NCBI GenBank assembly: GCA_002050355.1
Contig: MWYY01000060.1
Span: 62,001 to 126,000, forward strand
Reading direction: 5' to 3'
DNA length: 64,000 nucleotides
From: Acidobacteria bacterium 28-9
Lineage (GTDB): Bacteria; Acidobacteriota; Blastocatellia; Pyrinomonadales; Pyrinomonadaceae
Shown here: piece after piece, positions 4,657-62,277 of the stretch
Layout of the letters: each line of letters starts with the position of its first letter
How positions within the stretch are numbered: the first letter of the stretch is position 1
Position numbers and translations under genes: made by a program
Notes under the pieces: model-generated
What the model was told of the DNA's origin: nothing
Databases searched by the model: none
What the model saw: only the letters and a program-made list of their open reading frames with translations

Positions 4657-5289
4657 TTACGAAGACTTCCGGCGTTCGTGACGCGAGGCGATTGTATAAG
4701 GGCGCGTCGTGACGGTTTTTGCAGCCGTTTCAGATTCGCTGCCCATTGTAACCGGCAGAGTTCCGGGAACAATCGAAACGCGCGATTCCGGTTCGAAAGT
4801 GTCACGGCGGTCTTTAGACGATTCATTCATAATTTTTTCCTGCAACATCATAATCGCGTGAATCAACATTTCCGGTCGAGGCGGGCAACCGGGAACGTAA
4901 ACATCAACCGGCACGATTTTATCGACGCCCTGCACAATCGCATAATTATCAAAAACGCCGCCGGAGGTAGCGCATGCGCCCATCGAAATTACCCATTTCG
5001 GTTCGGGCATCTGGTCATAAATCCGGCGCAGAACCGGCGCCATTTTACGCGAAACTCTTCCCGAAACAATCATAACGTCAGCTTGGCGCGGGCTGGCGCG
5101 AAATGTTTCCGCGCCGAAACGCGAAAGGTCATTGCGCGATGAAACCGTGTTCATCATTTCAATTGCGCAGCAAGCCAACCCGAACGTAGCAGGCCACAAT
5201 GATGACTTTCTTGCCCAATTAACAACCGCATCGAGTTTTACCGTTAAAACGTCGGGCAGCGATTCAAAAAGTGTATTTTCTAAACCCAT
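4657..5289 (-). CDS. nuoB: NADH-quinone oxidoreductase subunit B
   Basis: 210 aa; [46 protein letters not shown]. Confidence 0.97.
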
Positions 5290-5378
5290 AACTTTTTTAG
5301 TTTGGAGTTCAGAGAGTCGTGAGTCAATACAAATTCTGGCTCTCTAAACTCTCCAAACTCGATAGACTCTCCGACTTT

Positions 5379-5909
5379 CTAAGCGGCGCGTTTTAATTGC
5401 TGAATACGCTGTTTTTTCTTGTTAAGCAATTCGTGTGCTTCGGCGCGAGCCTCGACCCGAGCCTGCACGCCCCAATCAAAAGTACCTTTTCTCCAAACAT
5501 AAATGTATCCGACAATCAGTGTTGCGATAAAAACCAGAATTTCTACAAACGCGATTGTTCCGTAACCGATGCCGAGACGGTTTTCTTCGCCTAGCAAATA
5601 CTTAAAAGCGACCGCGAACGGAATCATAAACAAAACTTCAATATCGAACAGCAAAAAGATAACCGCGACCGTGTAAAATTTTATCGAAAATCTATCGCGC
5701 GCCGACCCGATCGGGTCTTTGCCGCATTCATACGGCATCAGTTTGACGGCGGTTCTTTTACGCGGACCGATAAGCTGCGTAACAAGTATCTGACTCGCCG
5801 CAAAACCGAGCGCCACGATAAACATTACGCCGATTGGCGCATAATCAAAAAGATTAAATCCAGACATATTCAAATTGCTCGCTTCCTCATCTAAAACTAA
5901 TCGTAACAA
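5379..5909 (-). CDS. nuoA: NADH-quinone oxidoreductase subunit A (probable start at MSGFNLF, about 5867)
   Basis: Three TM segments, YECGKDPIGSARDRFSIKFYTVAVIFLLFDIEVLF motif. Confidence 0.95.
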   Translation of the reverse strand: MLRLVLDEEASNLNMSGFNLFDYAPIGVMFIVALGFAASQILVTQLIGPRKRTAVKLMPYECGKDPIGSARDRFSIKFYTVAVIFLLFDIEVLFMIPFAVAFKYLLGEENRLGIGYGTIAFVEILVFIATLIVGYIYVWRKGTFDWGVQARVEARAEAHELLNKKKQRIQQLKRAA

Positions 5910-6095
5910 AAAAACAATAGAATTCGCAGCTTGAAGATTGAGAATTATGGTACAAACTCAATCGTAAGTTAAGCCAGATTGAGTGTCAAGGTAATCAAGT
6001 AAGGAGAATTCACAGAACTTTGAGAGTGTTAGATAAAGCAAAATTTCAATTTTCAAAAACACAATATTTCCGTAACTTTTTATTCGTTGACCCTC

Positions 6096-6218
6096 GTCAA
6101 AAGCCTGTGCTAGTTTGATAATTAAAAAGAAAACGGTGGTTATGATTTTCGGTAGACAGACAGAGGAAATCTACAATTTCCGCCGTTATCAAAATGCGTG
6201 CTGCACAACATTAATTTT
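6096..6218 (+). promoter_or_regulatory. thiS leader with predicted structure (copy 1)
   Basis: TTTGAT/ATCAAA, AACGGTGG/CCGCCGTT and GTAGA/TCTAC nested pairings; about 120 nt identical to the copy-2 leader. Confidence 0.5.
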
Positions 6219-6419
6219 ATGAAAATTTTTATCAACGGTGAAATTAGAGACATTCCCGAAGTAATAAATCTGTTTGAACTTCTTGCTCATCTGTCGCTGC
6301 CGCAACAGCGCATCGCCGTCGAATTAAACGAATCAGTTGTGCGCCGTAAAGATTGGCACATTACAAAAATCAACGACACCGATAAAATCGAGATAATCCA
6401 TTTTGTCGGCGGCGGATGA
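6219..6419 (+). CDS. thiS: Sulfur carrier protein ThiS, copy 1 (track ORF begins 6198)
   Basis: 66 aa from MKIFINGE; C-terminal GGG*. Confidence 0.85.
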   Translation: MKIFINGEIRDIPEVINLFELLAHLSLPQQRIAVELNESVVRRKDWHITKINDTDKIEIIHFVGGG

Positions 6420-6634
6420 TTCGATTGCGAATTAACGGTTACAAATTACGAGTTGCGGATTGAAAACATTTTCAGTCCGCATTTCTTTTGCTCGTTTTTT
6501 TGTTAGAATTTAATTTGTTTGAGAAAAAATTCTTAGCGCGCTTTGCGCCTCTGTGGGAAATTATTTTTTATAAAATTAAGATTGCAGAGCAAAACTTTCT
6601 TCGACTTTGAATATTACACTTCGAACCAATACAT

Positions 6635-6844
6635 ATGATTGATACATTCAAAATTGCCGGAAAAACTTTTACTTCGCGCCTCATTATCGGGACGGGAAAA
6701 TATCGCTCACACGCGGAAATGCAAGCCGCTCACAAGGCATCGGGCGCGGAGATGGTTACGGTCGCCGTCAATCGCCATTCATACGGCATCAGTTTGACGG
6801 CGGTTCTTTTACGAGGACCGATAAGCTGCGTAACAAGTATCTGA
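6635..6844 (+). pseudogene. Truncated 5' fragment of thiG, fused to antisense nuoA sequence at 6775/6776
   Basis: [47 protein letters not shown] identical in type to the N-terminus of full thiG at 7686, then unrelated. Confidence 0.9.
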
Positions 6845-6960
6845 CTCGCCGCAAAACCGAGCGCCACGATAAACATTACGCCGATTGGCGCATAATCAAA
6901 AAGATTAAATCCAGACATATTCAAATTGCTCGCTTCCTCATCTAAAACTAATCGTAACAA
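6730..6960 (-). pseudogene. Truncated 5' fragment of nuoA (copy 2)
   Basis: First 61 aa identical to nuoA at 5379-5909, then junction with antisense thiG. Confidence 0.9.
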
Positions 6961-7146
6961 AAAAACAATAGAATTCGCAGCTTGAAGATTGAGAATTATG
7001 GTACAAACTCAATCGTAAGTTAAGCCAGATTGAGTGTCAAGGTAATCAAGTATGGAGAATTCACGGAAGTTTGAGAGTATCAAATAAAGCAAAATTTCGA
7101 TTTTCAAAAATACCGGCTTTCCGTAACTTTTTATTCGTTGACCCTT

Positions 7147-7268
7147 GTCAAAAGCCTGTGCTAGTTTGATAATTAAAAAGAAAACGGTGGTTATGATTTT
7201 CGGTAGACAGACAGAGGAAATCTACAATTTCCGCCGTTATCAAAATGCGTGCTGCACAACATTAATTT
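7147..7268 (+). promoter_or_regulatory. thiS leader with predicted structure (copy 2)
   Basis: Same pairings and sequence as copy 1. Confidence 0.5.
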
Positions 7269-7469
7269 ATGAAAGTTTTTATCAACGGCGAAACCAAAGA
7301 CATTCCCGAAGAAATTAATTTGATTAAACTTCTCGCACATCTGTCGCTGCCGCAGCAGCGCATAGCCGTCGAACTGAACGAATCAGTTGTGCGCCGTAAA
7401 GATTGGGACACTACAAAAATCAACGCCGCCGATAATATCGAGATAATCCACTTTGTCGGCGGCGGCTGA
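7269..7469 (+). CDS. thiS: Sulfur carrier protein ThiS, copy 2
   Basis: 66 aa, C-terminal GGG*; about 11 aa differences from copy 1. Confidence 0.88.
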   Translation: MKVFINGETKDIPEEINLIKLLAHLSLPQQRIAVELNESVVRRKDWDTTKINAADNIEIIHFVGGG

Positions 7470-7685
7470 AATCAATTGCGAATTAACGGTTACAAATTAC
7501 GAGTTGCGGATTGAAAACAATTTCAGTCCGCATTTCTTTTGTATGTTTTTTTGTTAGAATTTAATTTGTTTGAGAAAAAATTCTTAGCGCGCTTTGCGCC
7601 TCTGTGGGAAATTATTTTTTATAAAATTAAGATTGCAGAGCAAAACTTTCTTCGACTTTGAATATTACACTTCGAACCAATACAT

Positions 7686-8456
7686 ATGATTGATACATTC
7701 AAAATTGCCGGAAAAACTTTTACTTCGCGCCTCATTATCGGAACGGGAAAGTATCGCTCGTATGCGGAAATGAAAGCGGCACATACGGCATCGGGCACAG
7801 AAATGGTTACGGTTGCCGTCAATCGCGTTCCGCTCGACCATCAGAGCGAATCGTTTCTCGACTTTCTTGCGCCTGAGATGCAGATTTTGCCTAACACAGC
7901 CGGGTGCTACGATGCTGAACACGCAATCAGAACGGCGCGTCTCGCCCGCGAAGCGCTCGAAACCGATTGGATAAAGCTCGAAGTCATCGGCGATAAAGTT
8001 ACGCTTCTGCCCGACAATGAGCAAACCCTCGAAGCGGCGCGAATTCTCGTCCGAGAAGGTTTTATCGTTTTGCCGTATTTCTCCGACGATTTGATTATGG
8101 CGAAAAAATTATTGGACATCGGCTGTCCCGCCGTGATGCCGCTTGCCGCGCCGATTGGTTCGGGAATGGGCGTGCAAAACCCTTCAAATTTAAGGATTAT
8201 GCGCGAGCAATTGCCGGAGGCGACGATTATCGTTGACGCGGGAGTCGGCGTGCCGAGTGATGCCGCAATCGCAATGGAACTTGGCGCGGACGCGATTTTA
8301 ATGAACACGGCAATCGCCGAAGCGCAAGATGCGGCGCAGATGGCAACCGCGATGAAACTTGCTGTTCAAGCCGGAAGACTTGCGTATCTTTCGGGTAGAA
8401 TGCCGAAACGCCTTTACGCCAGCGCATCAAGTCCGATGGAAGGCGTGATAAAATGA
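7686..8456 (+). CDS. thiG: Thiazole synthase
   Basis: 256 aa; [59 protein letters not shown]. Confidence 0.97.
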
Positions 8457-19412: not shown

Positions 19413-21305
19413 TTAAGCGGCGACGTTTTCGCTTTTCGCGGAAAATTCCGGCAGCGCTTCAAAAACCGAAAGCGCATATTTTACGTTTCCAAACGGCGCT
19501 GAAACCTGCACGCCTTGTACTAAATCCGCAACTTCCGTCAGAGATTCGCGGGCGATTCTAATACCTTCGTCGCGCGCTTCTTCCTTACTTTTGTCCGATG
19601 CTTTTCGCATTCTTTCCAAAATTTCCGGCGTTACATTCACGCCGGGAACTTCGTTGTGCATAAACTCGGCGTTGCGAATGCTGACGAGCGGGAAAATTCC
19701 GGCGACAATCGGAATGCGGACGTGAGAAATTCGTTTCAGAAAATCCCGCAGTTGTTTCGTGTCGTAAACCGGCTGCGTTATCGCGTATTCCGCGCCGGCT
19801 TCGACTTTCCATTCAAAGCGTTTGATTTCTTCGTCTAAATTTATCGCGCCCGGATTGACCCCGACTCCGATTGAAAACGCCGTCGGGCAGCCGATTGGAT
19901 TATTGCCTAAATCCAAACCGTGATTAAGTTTGTTGACCATATTCGTCAAACCGATTGAGTCAATATCAAAAACGGCTGTCGCGTCCGGGTAAGAACCCAT
20001 TTTCGGCGGGTCGCCCGTGATTATCAACAAATTATGCAAGCCTAAAGCCGCTGCACCCAGAAGGTCGGACATCATTCCCAGAAGATTTCGGTCGCGGCAG
20101 CAATAATGCAAAACCGTTTCGATGCCTAAGTTTTGTTCGACCAAAATCGCTGTCGCCTGCGCGCTCATTCTGGTTTGCGCTCTCGGTCCGTCGGGAATAT
20201 TTACGGCGTCAACGCCATTTGCTTTGAGTAATTTGATTGAATCTAAAGTTTTTGCCGCATCGCAGCCTTTCGGCGGCAGAACTTCGACGCTCGTTACAAA
20301 TTCGCCGCGCGCGATTTTCCCAGACCAATTCGAGCGCATCTCAGCCGGAACAACCTGCACATCAATCGGCTTTAAATCAATAACTTTAACCGGTGCGGCG
20401 GTTGGTTTGACGGCAGCTTTCATTTGGCGCGGGCTAATGGCGCGAACCGCGTCGGAAATCAGCTTTATATGTTGCGGCGTCGTGCCGCAGCAGCCGCCGA
20501 CAAAATTTGCTCCGGCTTTGATAAAACGCTTGGCAAACTTCGACATATATTCGGGCGAACACATATAAAACTGCCGTCCCTGCACGTCTCTCGGAAGCCC
20601 GGCGTTTGGCTGTGCGGAAAGTTTTTTTGTCGTAACGCGGCGCATTTTTTCGAGCGCGCTTAAAATATGCGTCGGACCGACGCCGCAATTTACGCCGATA
20701 ACGTCCGCGCCCCAAGTCTCGAGCCTGCTCGTAAAAATTTCGGGCGTTGCGCCGAAAACGGTTTTGCCGTCGGTTTGGACGGTCATCTGCGCGATTATCG
20801 GCAAATCACACAATTGTTTAACTGCTTTGATAGCTTGTTGAATTTCCGATAAATCCGAAAAGGTTTCAAGAAGAAATAAATCTACGCCGCCTTCCAAAAG
20901 CGCGTAAACCTGTTCGGCAAACATTTCCCTGGCTTCGTCGAACGAAGTCGGTCCGTAGGGCTCGATTCGCAAATCGAGCGGTCCGATTGCTCCGGCGACA
21001 AAAACGTCTTCGCCCGCCGCTTGACGCGCTAATTTTACGCCGGCGACGTTAATTTCCTTTAACTTGTTTTCAAGGCTGTATTGCTGGAGTTTGTGGCGCG
21101 TCGCACCGAAAGTATTGGTTTCGATAATATCAGCTCCGACGCGCACATACTCGTCGTGAACTTCGCGCACCAGGTCAGGCGCAGTCAAGTTTAATTCGTC
21201 GTAAGAGCGATTGATATAAACGCCTTTATCGTAAAACCTCGTGCCGATTGCGCCGTCGAAAACGAAAATGCCGTCGCTGTTTAATATATCTCTAAAGTTT
21301 TTCAT
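19413..21305 (-). CDS. Bifunctional homocysteine S-methyltransferase / methylenetetrahydrofolate reductase (track ORF to 21332)
   Basis: N-terminal HMT domain (VFDGAIGTRFYDKG..., GGCCGTTPQHI) fused to MetF domain (HYCCRDRNLLGMMSDLLGAAALGLHNLLIITGDPP). Confidence 0.95.
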   Translation of the reverse strand: MKNFRDILNSDGIFVFDGAIGTRFYDKGVYINRSYDELNLTAPDLVREVHDEYVRVGADIIETNTFGATRHKLQQYSLENKLKEINVAGVKLARQAAGEDVFVAGAIGPLDLRIEPYGPTSFDEAREMFAEQVYALLEGGVDLFLLETFSDLSEIQQAIKAVKQLCDLPIIAQMTVQTDGKTVFGATPEIFTSRLETWGADVIGVNCGVGPTHILSALEKMRRVTTKKLSAQPNAGLPRDVQGRQFYMCSPEYMSKFAKRFIKAGANFVGGCCGTTPQHIKLISDAVRAISPRQMKAAVKPTAAPVKVIDLKPIDVQVVPAEMRSNWSGKIARGEFVTSVEVLPPKGCDAAKTLDSIKLLKANGVDAVNIPDGPRAQTRMSAQATAILVEQNLGIETVLHYCCRDRNLLGMMSDLLGAAALGLHNLLIITGDPPKMGSYPDATAVFDIDSIGLTNMVNKLNHGLDLGNNPIGCPTAFSIGVGVNPGAINLDEEIKRFEWKVEAGAEYAITQPVYDTKQLRDFLKRISHVRIPIVAGIFPLVSIRNAEFMHNEVPGVNVTPEILERMRKASDKSKEEARDEGIRIARESLTEVADLVQGVQVSAPFGNVKYALSVFEALPEFSAKSENVAA

Positions 21306-21385
21306 AAGTAGCCGGTTATCAACAGTCAGCAATCAGCAGAAAACCGACTGTGCGGGATTCTGCCGACTTATGTCTTCTGACCTCT

Positions 21386-21419
21386 CAAAACAAAAAGCCT
21401 CGGCTAAACAGCGCGAGAC
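21386..21419 (-). terminator. Intrinsic terminator of riboswitch expression platform (copy 1)
   Basis: Minus strand GTCTCGcGC-tgttta-GCCGAGGC followed by TTTTTGTTTT. Confidence 0.7.
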
Positions 21420-21445
21420 TTTAAAATAATCTTTTTTTGACGCTG

Positions 21446-21492
21446 TTTAGCAGTTTATTTTACGTGGTCGCAAGTCGCTATAACTCACCACG
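21446..21492 (-). promoter_or_regulatory. SAM-II-like riboswitch aptamer (copy 1)
   Basis: Minus strand CGTGGTGAGTTATAGCGACTTGCGACCACGTAAAATAAACTGCTAAA; P1 CGTGGT/ACCACG, CTTGC and terminal GCTAAA as in the SAM-II (metA) consensus. Confidence 0.8.
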
Positions 21493-21571
21493 AAAGATTA
21501 AAAATAAATGATGCGATTTTAGACGCTGAGTGTCAAGCGGCGATAAATTTGTTCGTCGGTTTTCTAAAGCA

Positions 21572-22636
21572 TTATTTGTCCCAAATAATCGGAAACAGAG
21601 TTCCGGCTTTTTCCGGCGAAATATCTACTCCGAGCTGTTTAGCGGCATAAGACAAAACCGGGTCCTTTCCCTCGGCTAAATCCTTTCCCGTCGGCAAAAC
21701 AATTTCGTCCGGCGTCACGCCGACTTTCTCCAAACTCGCACCGTCCGGCATAATAACGTCGGCAACCGTAATGCTCGCGCCATAGAAGATGATATTTCCC
21801 GTGCCGATTTCCATCGGATAAAACTCCGATTCCATAACGGCGCCGGCGGTTTTGTCGCCGATGAGTTTTCCGAATTTATTGAGCTGAACCGTGCGCGCAA
21901 AAATCTCCGAAGCCGAGCCGGAGTCGTGGTCAATCAAAACTATTAAATTGCCTTTAAACAGATTGTTTCCACGCGGTTTGGCAATCATCGGTTTGGTTTC
22001 CCTTTTCCTTTTTTCGTCGGCTATTTTCAAATCCTGGTCGGTAAAATAACCGACCAGACGTTTCAAAATAGAAACCGCGCCGCCGCCGTTTCCTCTCAAA
22101 TCAAGAATAAAAGATTTTGCGCCGTTCGCTTTCCTCAGCATATCGTCGATATGCTGGTCGGAAGTTGAAAAAGTAGTCATCTTCCAAATAAAAAGATTTT
22201 TGCCTGCTTCGACGTAACGGTCGGCTTCTGTGTCCCAACCTTTTTTGATTATTCTATTTATAATGTCTTCTATTTTTACGGCATTCGAGGTTTTCGTTAT
22301 TTTGGTTTGCACATCTACAACGCGCGGTTTCGCTTCGTCCGGATTCTGAACCGTAAAGCGAACCGCGCCGATCGGAATAATCGAATAATAACGGTAATAC
22401 ATTTGCCAAAGATTTTCGCGCGTCGGTTTGTAGCCATTGATCAGCAGAACTCTGTCTCCGATTTTCATTCCTTTTGCTTCGGCGTCGCTTTTCGGCTTGA
22501 CGCCGGTCACGTAACAATTTTTCCCGACCATCGAAACGCGCCATCCGTAATCTACGTCAGCCGAGCGCGAAGGCGGGTAAAAATTCGTATGCGAATCGTT
22601 AAGCGTCAATATTACCTGCGCCAAAATCATCATCAA
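21572..22636 (-). pseudogene. S41 peptidase lacking signal peptide and N-terminus (copy 1)
   Basis: 354 aa, identical to the C-terminal part of the full copy at 23304-24623; truncated at the duplication junction. Confidence 0.9.
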
Positions 22637-23037
22637 TTCATCGCGCGTTTGCGCATTTTCCTGGCTTCGTCGAACGAAGTCGGTCCGTAGGGCTCGATTC
22701 GCAAATCGAGCGGTCCGATTGCTCCGGCGACAAAAACGTCTTCGCCCGCCGCTTGACGCGCTAATTTTACGCCGGCGACGTTAATTTCCTTTAACTTGTT
22801 TTCAAGGCTGTATTGCTGGAGTTTGTGGCGCGTCGCACCGAAAGTATTGGTTTCGATAATATCAGCTCCGACGCGCACATACTCGTCGTGAACTTCGCGC
22901 ACCAGGTCAGGCGCAGTCAAGTTTAATTCGTCGTAAGAGCGATTGATATAAACGCCTGTATCGTAAAACCTCGTGCCGATTGCGCCGTCGAAAACGAAAA
23001 TGCCGTCGCTGTTTAATATATCTCTAAAGTTTTTCAT
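22633..23037 (-). pseudogene. N-terminal fragment of the HMT/MTHFR gene (copy 2; track ORF to 23064)
   Basis: Identical to the full gene except K/T, then ends RKMRKRAMN* at junction. Confidence 0.9.
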
Positions 23038-23303: not shown

Positions 23304-24623
23304 TTATTTGTCCCAAATAATCGGAAACAGAGTTCCGGCTTTTTCCGGCGAAATATCTACTCCGAGCTGTTTAGCGGCATAAGACAAAACCGGGTCCTTT
23401 CCCTCGGCTAAATCCTTTCCCGTCGGCAAAACAATTTCGTCCGGCGTCACGCCGACTTTCTCCAAACTCGCACCGTCCGGCATAATAACGTCGGCAACCG
23501 TAATGCTCGCGCCATAGAAGATGATATTTCCCGTGCCGATTTCCATCGGATAAAACTCCGATTCCATAACGGCGCCGGCGGTTTTGTCGCCGATGAGTTT
23601 TCCGAATTTATTGAGCTGAACCGTGCGCGCAAAAATCTCCGAAGCCGAGCCGGAGTCGTGGTCAATCAAAACTATTAAATTGCCTTTAAACAGATTGTTT
23701 CCACGCGGTTTGGCAATCATCGGTTTGGTTTCCCTTTTCCTTTTTTCGTCGGCTATTTTCAAATCCTGGTCGGTAAAATAACCGACCAGACGTTTCAAAA
23801 TAGAAACCGCGCCGCCGCCGTTTCCTCTCAAATCAAGAATAAAAGATTTTGCGCCGTTCGCTTTCCTCAGCATATCGTCGATATGCTGGTCGGAAGTTGA
23901 AAAAGTAGTCATCTTCCAAATAAAAAGATTTTTGCCTGCTTCGACGTAACGGTCGGCTTCTGTGTCCCAACCTTTTTTGATTATTCTATTTATAATGTCT
24001 TCTATTTTTACGGCATTCGAGGTTTTCGTTATTTTGGTTTGCACATCTACAACGCGCGGTTTCGCTTCGTCCGGATTCTGAACCGTAAAGCGAACCGCGC
24101 CGATCGGAATAATCGAATAATAACGGTAATACATTTGCCAAAGATTTTCGCGCGTCGGTTTGTAGCCATTGATCAGCAGAACTCTGTCTCCGATTTTCAT
24201 TCCTTTTGCTTCGGCGTCGCTTTTCGGCTTGACGCCGGTCACGTAACAATTTTTCCCGACCATCGAAACGCGCCATCCGTAATCTACGTCAGCCGAGCGC
24301 GAAGGCGGGTAAAAATTCGTATGCGAATCGTTAAGCGTCAATATTACCTGCGCCAAAATCATCATCAATTCATCGCGCGTTTGCGCATTTTGCATCCGCG
24401 TTTTGGCTTCAGTGTAAACAAATTCCAAATCTATGCCGTGATAATTCGGGTCGTAATAGTTTTTCTTGATTGTGTCTTTTACCGTGTCGAGCATTGCCAG
24501 CGCGCTGCTTCGGTCGCTGCCGCTTATCTGCGCATCAGCCGTCTGAAATCCGGCAAGAACAAACAAAAGGAGAAAGAATGCAGAAATCCAGCCTGTAAAC
24601 AAAAAGGTTCTAAGGTTTTTCAT
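23304..24623 (-). CDS. S41 family peptidase, full-length, secreted
   Basis: 439 aa; signal peptide, PDZ-like region, SFILDLRGNGGG and DHDSGSASEIFA catalytic region. Confidence 0.92.
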   Translation of the reverse strand: MKNLRTFLFTGWISAFFLLLFVLAGFQTADAQISGSDRSSALAMLDTVKDTIKKNYYDPNYHGIDLEFVYTEAKTRMQNAQTRDELMMILAQVILTLNDSHTNFYPPSRSADVDYGWRVSMVGKNCYVTGVKPKSDAEAKGMKIGDRVLLINGYKPTRENLWQMYYRYYSIIPIGAVRFTVQNPDEAKPRVVDVQTKITKTSNAVKIEDIINRIIKKGWDTEADRYVEAGKNLFIWKMTTFSTSDQHIDDMLRKANGAKSFILDLRGNGGGAVSILKRLVGYFTDQDLKIADEKRKRETKPMIAKPRGNNLFKGNLIVLIDHDSGSASEIFARTVQLNKFGKLIGDKTAGAVMESEFYPMEIGTGNIIFYGASITVADVIMPDGASLEKVGVTPDEIVLPTGKDLAEGKDPVLSYAAKQLGVDISPEKAGTLFPIIWDK

Positions 24624-33722: not shown

Positions 33723-35645
33723 TTACAAAATCAAACGTTTATCTCCGGCGCGGCGCGTCAGTTTTTCGCGGTCTAGATATTCGAGAAGCGGAATCGCATA
33801 TTTGCGCGAGACGTTTGCAATATCCTTAAAAGCCGCCACGTCAATCAAACGGTCGGAGGCATCCGCCGCAAATTCTTTTAGGTTTTTTATCAAATCGTCA
33901 ATCGCTTCTGTAGTGAAATAAAATTCTTCCGTTACTTTTATGACTTCGCCGGAATTTATAAAAAGCTGAAATATTTTCCGTGCGTGTTCTTTATTTAATT
34001 TCGTGTTCTCAGACGCTTCGGTCAGAGCCTTTTCAAGCGTCGGCACTTCCAATTTCGCGGTTTTGTAGATATTTTCTAACCGCTCGCGCAAAACGTTTTC
34101 TTCGGCTGACAATTTAGGATTATGGGAAACAAGCCCGACAAAATCTTTTTCCGAGACAATTTTACTCTCCATTTCCAAACTTTGAAGGGAGATTTTGAAA
34201 ATCTCCGGCGCGAGCCGCGAAAAGATTTTCTCACGCAGAGTTTCTCGCAAAATCCCTTTTGCAAGCGGTTCTTTTCGATGATAATTTTCGATTTCGATCA
34301 AAGTTTTTGCTTTCAAATTTTCAAACGGCAACCGCGCAATGTAAAAATTGTCTGCTTTGGCAATTGCTTTTTTATCGAGATTTTCGCCAATCGCTTTTTG
34401 CAAAATCTCTGTGCGCCAACCGGTTCGCGCCTGCAAATCCGAAAATGTCGCGCCGTGTTCGCTCGCCGTTTCGAGAAAAAGTTTTATTTGTTCGGCTTTG
34501 TCACTTTCGGCTTTGATTAAATTTTGCAAATACCTGCAAGCGTTTTCGACATCTTTTCGTCGATGCCTTGCCGCAAAATTATCCAAAACTTTTCCGCCCG
34601 CCACGGTCGTCTGCGGCGAGTAGCTGCGAATAATAAACCTATCATTTGGAGCGGTTACGACAGGAATTTCCAAACGCAGCTGCACAAAATCTTTCTCGCT
34701 CGCTGCAATTTCGTTTCGCTCGTTTAAAACCTGAACTCTAGCAAGAGCTTCGATTGTGCCGATGTGAACGCGAACGCGCTGACGTGATTTCAAACTGTGT
34801 TTCGCGTTCTTCAAAACTTCGATTTCGGCATCGAAAATCTGTGTTGCGCGCAGAGAATTTTTTTCGCACAAAACCATACCGCGCACGATTTCCGAATGCT
34901 CGACGCCGCCCAAATTAACGGCGGTTCGCTGCCCTGAACCGGCTGATTTGACCGTCTTTCCGTGAGTTTGCAAGCCGCGAACACGCGCTTTTTTCTGCAA
35001 CGGCAGAATTTCCATCTCGTCGGCTTCGCGTATTTCACCCGAACGGAGCGTTCCGGTTACGACCGCGCCGAAACCTTTGACGGAAAAGCTGCGGTCAATC
35101 GGAAGACGCGCAACAGTTTCGTTTTTTCTGGCGGGAATTTTTCTGGAAATTTCGCATAAGATTCTTTTGAAATCTTCAATACCCGCGCCAGTTTTCGCGC
35201 TCACGCAAACGATTGGCGCATTTTCGAGAAACGAATTTTCGACGAGTTCTGCGGCATCGAGTTTGACCAGTTCGAGCAGTTCCGCGTCGTCAACTGCGTC
35301 AATTTTCGTCAAAACGATCAAACCGAATTTTATTTCGAGCAGACGACAAATTTCAAAATGCTCGCGCGTTTGCGGCATCACGCCTTCATCGGCGGCGATG
35401 ACCAGTGCGACTAAATCAATGCCGTGCGCACCCGCCAGCATATTTTTGACGAACTTTTCGTGTCCCGGAACATCAACAAAACCGACGCGCACGTCGCCCA
35501 AATCAAGCTCGGCAAAACCGATGTCAATCGTAATGCCGCGTTGTTTTTCTTCGGGCAGACGGTCGGCATCAACGCCTGTCAATGCTTTGACAAGCGAAGT
35601 TTTTCCGTGGTCGATGTGTCCGGCTGTCCCGACGATTATGTCCAT
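33723..35645 (-). CDS. selB: Selenocysteine-specific elongation factor SelB (track ORF to 35675)
   Basis: [51 protein letters not shown] domains plus C-terminal winged helices. Confidence 0.96.
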
Positions 35646-35652
35646 AAAAAGA

Positions 35653-35692
35653 AATTCCAAGTTTAACATTTTCACAGGTTAAACTTGGAATT
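35653..35692 (-). promoter_or_regulatory. 15-bp perfect hairpin in the selB 5' leader
   Basis: AATTCCAAGTTTAAC-N10-GTTAAACTTGGAATT then TCTTTTT immediately before the ATG (minus strand). Confidence 0.6.
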
Positions 35693-58742: not shown

Positions 58743-59921
58743 ATGAAAGAAGCAGTTATCGTATCAGCCGTGCGGACGGCTGTCGGAAAAGCGCCGAAGG
58801 GAACTTTGAAAAACACTCGTCCTGATGAGATGGGCGCGGCGGTTATCAGAGAAGCCGTCGGGCAGGTTGAGAATCTGGACGTTTCGCAGATTGAAGATGT
58901 GATTATGGGCTGCGCGTTTCCCGAAGCCGAGCAGGGAATGAATGTTGCGCGGACAGCGGCGATTCGCGCAGGTTTGCCGGTCGAGACGAGCGCGATGACG
59001 GTTAATCGTTACTGCTCGTCGGGTTTGCAGACGATTGCGATTGCTGCAGACAGAATTAAAACGGGTGGCGCAGATATTATCGTTGCAGGCGGGTTGGAAA
59101 CGATGTCGATGATTCCGATGGGCGGAAATGTTATTCGTCCGAATCCAGAATTGATTGAAACTTACCCGGATTATTATTTGAATATGGGCTTGACCGCCGA
59201 AAATCTGGCGCAGAAATATGAAATCTCGCGTGAGCAGTCGGACGAATTCGCCTTGCAGTCGCACCAGCGAGCGGCGGAAGCAATTAAGTCAGGAAAATTT
59301 AAGGATGAAATTGTTTCGTTAAGTGTGCGCGTTGACGAAACGGACGAAAAAGGGCGCGTTTTGCGGCAGGAAATCGCTTTCGACACGGACGAAGGCGTGC
59401 GTTTTGATTCGACAATCGAAGGTTTGCAAAAATTAAAACCGGCGTTTCACGTCAAAGGAACGGTGACGGCGGGAAATTCTTCGCAAATGTCGGACGGCGC
59501 GGCTGCGGCTGTTGTAATGTCTTTGGAAAAAGCGCAGGAAATCGGCGCAAAACCGCTGGCGCGTTTTGTAGCTTATGCGACGAGCGGCTGCTTGCCCGAA
59601 GAAATGGGAATCGGTCCTGTTTACGCGATTCCGAAAGTTTTGAAAATGGCTGGTTTGACGATGGACGATATTGACGTTATCGAACTCAACGAAGCGTTTG
59701 CCGTGCAATCTCTGGCGGTGATGAAACTTCTTGAAATGAATCCTGAAAAGGTAAATGTCAACGGCGGCGCGATTGCGCTCGGGCATCCGCTTGGCTGTTC
59801 TGGCGCGAAATTGACGGCGACGATTTTGCGCGAAATGGAAAGAAGAAACGCGCGTTATGGAATGGTCACGATGTGCGTCGGCGGCGGAATGGGCGCGGCA
59901 GGAATTTTTGAGAGAATTTAA
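58743..59921 (+). CDS. fadA: Acetyl-CoA acyltransferase (thiolase)
   Basis: [54 protein letters not shown]. Confidence 0.96.
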
Positions 59922-59931
59922 TAAAAGAAAT

Positions 59932-60480
59932 ATGAGTGAAAAACAGAGAATAAAAGGCGTCGAGGAAACGGAAGCATCGTTTTTGATTAAACCGCTTTAC
60001 GCTGCTTCTAGAAAAATTCTTGGGAAAGTCGTGCAGCCGCTTAAAGTTCAAGCGCGGCGACCTTCGATTGCGTGGTTTGGCAATCTTTTGGGTATTGCTA
60101 TTGAAAAGTCCGGTAAAGTCGAAGTGCGGATTCACGTTCTCGCGCAGCTTCGCGCGGCGCAAATTGTCGAATGCCCGTTCTGAATGGACAGCCTTCCTGC
60201 GGTCGGCAGGCAGAGAAAAGTTGTTACGGACGAAGAAATCAGAGAAATTCCCAATTGGGAACACAGCAAAGTTTTGGGCGAGCGCGATAAAGTTGCGATT
60301 GAATATGCGGAAGAAATATCAAAAACGCCCGTCAGTGTTTCCGATGAACTTTTCGAGAAATTGAAAAGGTTTTTTAGCGACGATCAAATCGTTGAACTGA
60401 CGGCAAGTATCGCTTACGAAAATTACCGCGCGCGGTTTAGTCACGCACTACACATAGCAAGCGAAAATTTATATAGGTAA
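59932..60480 (+). CDS. Probable AhpD/carboxymuconolactone decarboxylase-like selenoprotein, Sec at TGA 60181-60183
   Basis: Track splits it as 59857-60183 and 60184-60480 in the same frame; ...HVLAQLRAAQIVECPF(U)MDSLPAVGRQRKVVTDEEIREIPNWEHSKVLGERDKVAIEYAEEI...ALHIASENLYR*; the TGA sits at the second Cys of a CxxC motif. Confidence 0.85.
60184..60216 (+). promoter_or_regulatory. bSECIS-like hairpin
   Basis: Directly after TGA: CCTGC-GGTCG-GCAGG, loop starting GGUC 17 nt after the UGA. Confidence 0.75.
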
Positions 60481-60492
60481 CAGGAGAAAATT

Positions 60493-62277
60493 ATGGACGC
60501 AGAAATGGAAAAAGATTTTATCAAAGGCGGCGCGTTTTTGATTGAAGACCGAACGGCGGGCGAGGTTTTTACGCCGGAAGATTTAACCGAAGAGCAACGA
60601 ATGATTGGCGAGACGACGCGCGAATTTGTTGATACGGAAGTTCGTCCGAACATTGCCGAAATGGAAAAACACAACTGGCAACTATCGCGTGAATTAATCG
60701 TTAAAGCGGGCGAACTCGGACTTTTGGGCGCGAACATTCCCGAAGAATATGGCGGTTTGGAATTAGACCAAACGACTGGCATTGTCGTCGCAGAAAATAT
60801 GGGACGCGCGGGCGGCTTCGGCGTCGGTTACGGAGCGCAGACATCAATCGGATTGTTGCCGATTCTTTATTTTGGCTCGGAAGAATTAAAACGAAAATGG
60901 ATTCCGCCGATTGTTTCCGGCGAGACGATTACGGCTTATTGTTTGTCGGAAGCGGGAAGCGGCTCGGACGCGCTCGGCGCGAAGGCAAACGCAAAACTTT
61001 CGGACGACGGAACACATTATGTTTTGAACGGCGAAAAGATGTGGATTACAAACGGTGGTTTTGCCGATGTTTTCATTGTGTTCGCAAAAGTTGACGGCGA
61101 CAAAAAACAGTTTTCGGCGTTTGTTGTTGAACGCTCAGAAAATTGTCGCCCCGGCGCGGAAGAACATAAAATGGGCATCAAATCTTCTTCGACAACGCCT
61201 TTGATTTTATCTGATGCGCGAGTTCCGGTCGGAAACTTAATCGGCAACGTCGGCGACGGCGCGAAAATCGCTTTTAACATTTTGAATGTCGGAAGATTTA
61301 AACTCGGCGCGTCGGTGACGGGCGGCGCGAAACTCGCTTTGCACGAAGCAATTCGTTACGCGAATGAACGGCAGCAGTTTGGTAAATCAATTTCGTCTTT
61401 CGGCGCAATCAAACACAAACTTGCGGAAATGGCGATAAAAACTTGGGTTTCCGAATCAATTACTTACCGAACGGTCGGGATGATTGACGCTTTAATTGGC
61501 GACGGCGCGAGCGCGGAAAAGAAATTGCAGTCAATCGAAGAATATGCGGTTGAAAGTTCAATAAACAAAGTTGCTTGTTCCGAAGCGCTTGATTTTGTTG
61601 TTGATGAAATGGTGCAGATTTACGGTGGTTACGGTTATTCGGCGGATTACCCGGCGGAAAAAGCATATCGAGATTCGCGCATCAACCGCATTTTTGAAGG
61701 CACGAACGAAATCAATCGAATGCTCATTCCGGGAATGCTGATGAAACGCGCGATGAAAGATCAACTTGGTTTATTAAATGCGGCGAAGGCTTTGCAGGAC
61801 GAGATTTTAAATCCGCAAATGCCGTCGTTTGACGAAGACGAAACGGTTCTCGCAACCGAAATGAAGCTCGCGCAGAATGCGAAGAAAATCGCTTTAATGA
61901 TTCTCGGAACGGCGGCACAGAAATATATGATGGAGCTGCAAAATCAGCAGGAAATTTTGATGAACGCGGCGGACATTATCGTTGACGCATATCAAATGGA
62001 ATCGGCGATTTTGCGGGCGCAGAAGTTTGCCGAAAAGAACGGCGAAGACACGGCAGCGCGTGTTGTCGATATAGCATCGGTTTTCTGCAACGACGCAATT
62101 CAGCGTGTTGAAACGGCGGCGAAAAATACAATCGCGGCATTCGCAGAAGGCGACGAAATGCGAACGCTTCTTGTTGCGCTAAAACGATTTACAAAAAACA
62201 ATTCGCCTGTCAACACGATTGCGGCGCGACAACGAATTGCCGATACGCTTATTCAGGCGAACAAATATGTTTTTTAG
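60493..62277 (+). CDS. Acyl-CoA dehydrogenase
   Basis: 594 aa; AYCLSEAGSGSDALGAKANAKL, EKMWITNGGFADVF, YGGYGYSADYPAEKAYRDSRINRIFEGTNEINR. Confidence 0.96.
   Translation: MDAEMEKDFIKGGAFLIEDRTAGEVFTPEDLTEEQRMIGETTREFVDTEVRPNIAEMEKHNWQLSRELIVKAGELGLLGANIPEEYGGLELDQTTGIVVAENMGRAGGFGVGYGAQTSIGLLPILYFGSEELKRKWIPPIVSGETITAYCLSEAGSGSDALGAKANAKLSDDGTHYVLNGEKMWITNGGFADVFIVFAKVDGDKKQFSAFVVERSENCRPGAEEHKMGIKSSSTTPLILSDARVPVGNLIGNVGDGAKIAFNILNVGRFKLGASVTGGAKLALHEAIRYANERQQFGKSISSFGAIKHKLAEMAIKTWVSESITYRTVGMIDALIGDGASAEKKLQSIEEYAVESSINKVACSEALDFVVDEMVQIYGGYGYSADYPAEKAYRDSRINRIFEGTNEINRMLIPGMLMKRAMKDQLGLLNAAKALQDEILNPQMPSFDEDETVLATEMKLAQNAKKIALMILGTAAQKYMMELQNQQEILMNAADIIVDAYQMESAILRAQKFAEKNGEDTAARVVDIASVFCNDAIQRVETAAKNTIAAFAEGDEMRTLLVALKRFTKNNSPVNTIAARQRIADTLIQANKYVF

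What the first reader, a model, noticed from the sequence alone, without database searches (positions are those of the whole stretch)
59932..60480. Unannotated selenoprotein: AhpD/CMD-like protein with a CPF-U redox motif
Seen directly: ORFs 59857-60183 and 60184-60480 are in the same frame, separated by one TGA. Across it the sequence reads ...LAQLRAAQIVECPF-U-MDSL..., so the TGA falls on the second Cys of the CxxC motif typical of AhpD/carboxymuconolactone decarboxylase-family proteins. A hairpin CCTGC-GGTCG-GCAGG lies immediately 3' of the TGA; its loop begins GGUC 17 nt downstream, resembling the GGUC apical loop of E. coli fdhF. A full selB is in the same window. Established: AhpD-like proteins with CxxU occur among bacterial selenoproteins. 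Inference: the gene sits between thiolase and acyl-CoA dehydrogenase and may have a redox role in the beta-oxidation operon.
Basis: partly seen in the sequence, partly recalled or inferred. Interest (0 to 1): 0.88.

Follow-up and report, generated by a model that had tools for sequence, protein, structure and literature searches.

The report
Selenocysteine AhpD-like gene in beta-oxidation operon
An uncultured Acidobacterium appears to use a stop codon to put selenium into the active site of a small thiol-redox enzyme lying between two fatty-acid-breakdown genes, and a sister species has exchanged that gene, at the same spot, for an ordinary cysteine version.

Summary
59932-60480 encodes one 182-residue protein in which TGA 60181-60183 is read as selenocysteine (Sec), at the second position of CPFU. 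The machinery is in the same genome: tRNA-Sec, selA, a Sec-containing selD, and selB in this window. Thirty-two placed loci, in Acidobacteria and Rokubacteria, carry TGA at exactly this column; seven other aligned homologues have Cys. A 5-bp hairpin with a 5-nt loop follows at a fixed distance: complete in 24 of 25 Sec genes tested, in 0 of 7 Cys genes, with compensatory changes in 4 of 5 pairs. It meets the published bSECIS model. The fold is AhpD/CMD-like (pLDDT 92.6; TM 0.85-0.87 to Bmp8 and AhpD). AhpD-like (COG2128/YciW) CxxU selenoproteins are known since 2006, but this branch scores 120 bits against a cut-off of 310 for the nearest NCBIfam model, so it is an unnamed subfamily. New here: the gene is an accessory insert between thiolase and acyl-CoA dehydrogenase, and in a sister genome with ~95% identical flanking proteins the Sec allele seems replaced in place by a Cys allele, although that genome keeps tRNA-Sec and selA. 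A role in beta-oxidation is inference.

The parts
59932..60480 (+). Sec-containing AhpD/CMD-like protein, 182 residues, TGA=U
   Evidence: CMD Pfam 27.5 bits, cut-off 23; AlphaFold pLDDT 92.6; the half after the TGA is as conserved as the half before (dN 0.11 and 0.16 with saturated dS)
60181..60183 (+). TGA read as selenocysteine, second position of CPFU
   Evidence: TGA at the same codon in 32 loci; TGC/TGT in Cys orthologues
60172..60174 (+). TGC, first Cys of CxxU, likely resolving residue
   Evidence: Invariant in all 14 aligned homologues
60196..60210 (+). bSECIS hairpin core: CCTGC, loop GGTCG, GCAGG
   Evidence: All five pairs in 24 of 25 Sec homologues, 0 of 7 Cys; 98.6% of cells paired, compensatory changes in 4 of 5 pairs; meets the model in PMC13188914
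58743..59921 (+). Thiolase (acetyl-CoA acetyltransferase type), upstream neighbour
   Evidence: Thiolase_N/C Pfam; adjacent in all six group-A genomes
60493..62277 (+). Acyl-CoA dehydrogenase, downstream neighbour
   Evidence: Pfam Acyl-CoA_dh; adjacent in five of six group-A genomes
33723..35675 (-). selB, Sec-specific elongation factor
   Evidence: TIGR00475 404 bits, cut-off 242

Best explanation
A single selenoprotein of the AhpD/carboxymuconolactone-decarboxylase fold. The ribosome reads UGA 60181 as Sec through SelB, tRNA-Sec and the hairpin that starts 12 nt further on (supported by comparison, not by experiment). In the folded protein Sec replaces the second Cys of the AhpD CxxC site, the peroxidatic position in M. 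tuberculosis AhpD (my own knowledge). Most likely the selenol attacks an oxidised or electrophilic substrate, the Cys three residues earlier resolves it as a selenenylsulfide, and a thioredoxin- or lipoamide-type donor reduces it again (inferred). Sitting between thiolase and acyl-CoA dehydrogenase, its substrate is plausibly a hydroperoxide or reactive by-product of acyl-CoA oxidation (inferred, weaker). The Sec form is probably ancestral in this branch; a Cys form arose in some members of the genus and was moved by recombination into a sister species, replacing the Sec allele in place.
For: Machinery: tRNA-Sec 72.9 bits and ARAGORN tca, selA 543.9 bits, selD with its own Sec CAGU, selB. TGA at the second Cys of CxxC in every Sec homologue placed, across Acidobacteria and Rokubacteria. 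Hairpin conservation, covariation and its absence in Cys orthologues. Purifying selection after the TGA. Fold: Bmp8, D. radiodurans AhpD and D. geothermalis peroxidase-related protein at query TM 0.85-0.87. Allele swap: G014 flanking proteins 94.5-96.4% identical to the window but the AhpD-like protein 64.8%, and that protein is 91.6% identical to G010's, whose flanks are only ~80% identical; sharp change at gene ends; AU test rejects window+G014 for AhpD (p 4e-35) while thiolase groups them (98/99) and rejects G014 with G010/G017 (p 2e-7). G010, G014, G017 keep tRNA-Sec and selA.
Against: No expression, mass-spectrometry or activity data. For the window alone, random synonymous codons give all five hairpin pairs with P 0.12, so the hairpin case rests on the comparative set. 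The nearest Sec relative, L023, has one mismatched pair and loop CGGCG. The AhpD proton-relay His four residues after the second Cys (present in 2gmy) is Leu here, so classical AhpD peroxidase activity is not assured. Direction Sec to Cys rests on parsimony; the Cys clade's support is 100/99 in the 32-row tree but 76/75 in the 8-row tree. Many of the genomes are draft metagenome assemblies.
Confidence: 0.95

Rival explanations
1. A true stop: the gene is a pseudogene, or the TGA is a sequencing error of TGC/TGT.
For: A draft genome; Cys versions of the gene exist in the same genus.
Against: The same TGA in 32 loci from independent assemblies; strong purifying selection on the part after the TGA; hairpin kept only in TGA forms.
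Confidence: 0.02
2. Two separate proteins: translation stops at TGA and restarts at the adjacent ATG 60184 (TGAATG).
For: In the window the codon after TGA is ATG, giving a 98-codon downstream ORF.
Against: In most homologues the next codon is CAG, CAA, ATC, ATT, CTG, GTG or GTC, so an ATG restart is not general; the split would cut the CMD domain inside the CxxC helix; Cys orthologues are one continuous ORF.
Confidence: 0.02
3. The Sec gene is as described, but the Cys/Sec mosaic in G014 is a metagenome assembly chimera and no allele swap took place.
For: The G014 contig is only 7 kb, from a metagenome assembly; G010-like DNA could have been joined in.
Against: Both flanks stay about 84-94% identical to the window and both borders fall at gene ends; the inserted gene is 91.6%, not 100%, identical to the known Cys alleles.
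Confidence: 0.12

Closest known systems
NCBIfam NF053654 GroundWater_YciW, 'YciW-related (seleno)protein'
   Same: Full-length match at 9e-35; same CxxU position and hairpin register. A relative of type CEFUQDINAAV scores 344.7, above the cut-off.
   Different: The window branch (CPFUMD) scores 113-120 against the cut-off 310, is a separate branch in the tree, and has a different gene context.
AhpD-like (COG2128/TIGR01926) CxxU selenoproteins, known since 2006
   Same: AhpD-like family with Sec as the last residue of CxxU (PMC1794560, PMC9312934, PMC13188914).
   Different: TIGR01926 score 30 against cut-off 82; the 2006 table, as I read its columns, lists no Sec-to-Cys event for AhpD-like (PMC1794560).
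Bmp8 debrominase (PDB 6ohi/6ohj) and D. radiodurans AhpD (6k40)
   Same: Best solved folds, TM 0.85-0.87 to the query.
   Different: Only 18-22% identity, Cys not Sec; substrate preference cannot be transferred.
M. tuberculosis AhpD (1knc, 1gu9)
   Same: CxxC helix of the CMD superfamily.
   Different: Weak structural match (E 0.5-0.9); its His four residues after the second Cys is missing here.

Membership tests
Bacterial selenoprotein | In-frame TGA aligned with Cys in homologues | tested here: met
Bacterial selenoprotein | Sec machinery in the same genome (tRNA-Sec, SelA, SelB, SelD) | tested here: met
Bacterial selenoprotein | bSECIS: loop 3-9 nt, stem 4-16 bp, G in first two loop positions, 16-37 nt from UGA, MFE at most -7.5 kcal/mol | tested here: met
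   Loop GGUCG 5 nt, stem 5 bp, 17 nt, -10.0 kcal/mol over 27 nt (model)
Bacterial selenoprotein | Sec present in the protein in vivo | not testable with these tools
   Needs 75Se labelling or mass spectrometry
Carboxymuconolactone decarboxylase family (Pfam PF02627) | Score above the gathering cut-off | tested here: met
   27.5 bits, cut-off 23
NCBIfam NF053654 YciW-related (seleno)protein | Score above the curated cut-off 310 | tested here: not met
   120 bits; two orthologues 113
TIGR01926 peroxidase-related enzyme | Score above the curated cut-off 81.8 | tested here: not met
   30.3 bits
Classical AhpD alkylhydroperoxidase | His four residues after the second Cys (proton relay) | tested here: not met
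   Leu in the window, His in 2gmy
Classical AhpD alkylhydroperoxidase | Peroxidase activity with a thiol donor | not testable with these tools
   Needs an enzyme assay

The most novel reading that the evidence does not exclude
A Sec-dependent enzyme built into the fatty-acid beta-oxidation operon of some Acidobacteria, handling a reactive by-product of acyl-CoA oxidation, whose Sec and Cys alleles are exchanged between sister species by recombination while the Sec machinery is kept, so that selection for or against selenium at one active site can be seen directly.
Probability: 0.4. Interest if true: 0.7.

Novelty: new member of a known kind. Interest (0 to 1): 0.5.

Why it matters
Standard gene calling would split or truncate the gene. 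It adds an unnamed subfamily of AhpD-like selenoproteins in mostly uncultured Acidobacteria. Reviews state that bacterial Sec-to-Cys replacement is rare and documented mainly for FdhA and SelD (PMC13188914, PMC1794560); here is a probable further case, with a natural in-place allele replacement in a genome that still has tRNA-Sec and selA. This makes the question 'why keep or drop Sec at one active site' testable with two orthologues from the same operon position.

Tried and rejected
The start at ATG 59857 was rejected (overlaps thiolase in another frame). Genome-wide TGA recoding was rejected (TGA is a stop for 9 of 46 window genes). Loss of Sec machinery as the cause of the Cys form was rejected for G010, G014, G017. 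Enrichment of the Sec gene in tRNA-Sec genomes is uninformative because 104 of 119 genomes in the order have tRNA-Sec; two Sec-gene genomes (G089, G107) lacked a found tRNA-Sec, G089 being 67% complete and G107 having selA. Rfam gave only chance hits near the gene. No plasmid match. The published example MCB9421940 was not available as a record. Two loci with TGA, L068 and L069, were not placed by my motif search and are not counted.

Full report
WHAT IS THERE. The sequence is as described: one open frame 59932-60480 interrupted by TGA 60181-60183, reading ...LAQLRAAQIVECPF-U-MDSLPAVGRQ.... The likely start is ATG 59932, ten bases after the thiolase stop; the 25 residues added by ATG 59857 lie in the thiolase gene in another frame. 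The window is 62001-126000 of contig C62 of a 3.65 Mb draft genome.

SEC MACHINERY. tRNA-Sec (72.9 bits, anticodon tca), selA (543.9 bits, cut-off 268), selD with its own in-frame TGA in CAGU (354 bits) and selB in the window (404 bits, cut-off 242) are all present. TGA ends 9 of 46 window genes normally.

HOMOLOGUES. In 119 genomes of the order, P0001 finds a set of homologues with one internal TGA. After orientation, TGA sits at the second Cys of CxxC in 25 loci including the window and two Rokubacteria loci, and in 7 further loci, two from the class search and five from the phylum search. Seven aligned homologues have TGC or TGT there; three of them (G010, G014, G017) are of the window's own genus. 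Sec forms fall into a window branch (CPFUMD), two further CPFU branches, and a CEFUQD branch that includes Rokubacteria.

HAIRPIN. In the Sec genes a stem of five pairs with a five-base loop begins 12 nt after the TGA. All five pairs form in 24 of 25 Sec genes and in none of 7 Cys genes. Over 29 distinct sequences 98.6% of pair cells are standard pairs (86.1% in shuffles; 22-61% when slid), and four of five pairs show changes on both sides, including a rewritten inner stem GCTAG/CTAGC in L066. The window's own hairpin meets all constraints of the published bSECIS model. Taken alone, however, synonymous shuffling of the window gene gives five pairs with P 0.12, so the comparative set carries the argument.

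SELECTION. Between window and L023, dN is 0.16 before and 0.11 after the TGA with dS saturated. Both halves are under purifying selection.

FOLD. The AlphaFold model, with TGA read as Cys, has mean pLDDT 92.6. The best solved folds are Bmp8 debrominase, PA0269, Atu0492 and D. radiodurans AhpD, agreeing with the profile search. The His four residues after the second Cys in 2gmy is Leu here, so the classical AhpD relay is incomplete.

CONTEXT. Thiolase lies directly upstream in all six members of the window branch, and acyl-CoA dehydrogenase downstream in five; none of the other branches' loci shows these neighbours within the flanks held. Other genomes of the family have thiolase and acyl-CoA dehydrogenase near each other without this gene between them: it is an accessory insert. 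G010 carries an extra reading frame between thiolase and the Cys gene.

ALLELE SWAP. The window and G014 are sisters by thiolase (96.4%) and the start of acyl-CoA dehydrogenase (94.5%), yet their AhpD-like proteins are 64.8% identical. G014's protein is 91.6% identical to that of G010, whose thiolase is only 80.7% identical to G014's. Identity changes at the gene ends. Trees conflict: AhpD rejects window+G014 (p 4e-35), thiolase supports them (98/99) and rejects G014+G010+G017 (p 2e-7); the short acyl-CoA dehydrogenase piece agrees weakly (p 0.045). The simplest reading is that G014 received the Cys allele. The CPFU and CEFU branches around the window branch are Sec with the same hairpin, so Cys is probably derived, but this rests on parsimony. 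G010, G014 and G017 retain tRNA-Sec and selA.

COMPARISON. AhpD-like CxxU selenoproteins are listed in PMC1794560, PMC9312934 and PMC13188914. NCBIfam NF053654 covers the CEFUQD branch (344.7 bits) but not the window branch (113-120 against 310). So the protein is a new subfamily member of a known kind. Reviews describe bacterial Sec-to-Cys replacement as rare, which gives the allele swap its interest.

MECHANISM. Supported by computation: gene structure, decoding machinery, hairpin conservation, fold, context. Inferred: Sec is incorporated in vivo; selenol is the attacking group and the Cys three residues earlier resolves; reductant thioredoxin- or lipoamide-like; substrate linked to acyl-CoA oxidation. 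Confidence is high for selenoprotein (0.95), moderate for thiol-peroxidase-like chemistry (about 0.6), low for a beta-oxidation-specific substrate (about 0.35).

Noticed in passing
G000 contigs C29:120497-121423 and C97:2281-3207 (L017, L018): Two selD loci, 87% identical over 2.7 kb, both with Sec at CAGU; C97 is a 5.8 kb contig and may come from a related species in the bin.
   Followed up: partly
window 20922-22953: Direct duplication with 1732-bp spacing, 100% identical over the 300-bp reference copy, giving a second, shortened copy of an S41-protease-like gene (21572-22636 and 23304-24623); could be real or an assembly artefact.
   Followed up: partly
window 5725-7771: Direct duplication with about 1050-bp spacing, 89-99% identical, next to the NADH dehydrogenase genes.
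   Followed up: no
L010:4423-5000 (G010): An extra reading frame with a signal-peptide-like start (MKNSILKLSLIGLVSLGLFSAAIGQ) sits between thiolase and the Cys AhpD-like gene.
   Followed up: no
L063:2612-3166 (-) and 5058-5522 (-): G010 has two further Cys-type AhpD/CMD-like genes near each other on contig C98.
   Followed up: no
119 genomes of the window's order: tRNA-Sec in 104 and selA in 106 of 119 genomes: Sec use is nearly universal in this order.
   Followed up: yes
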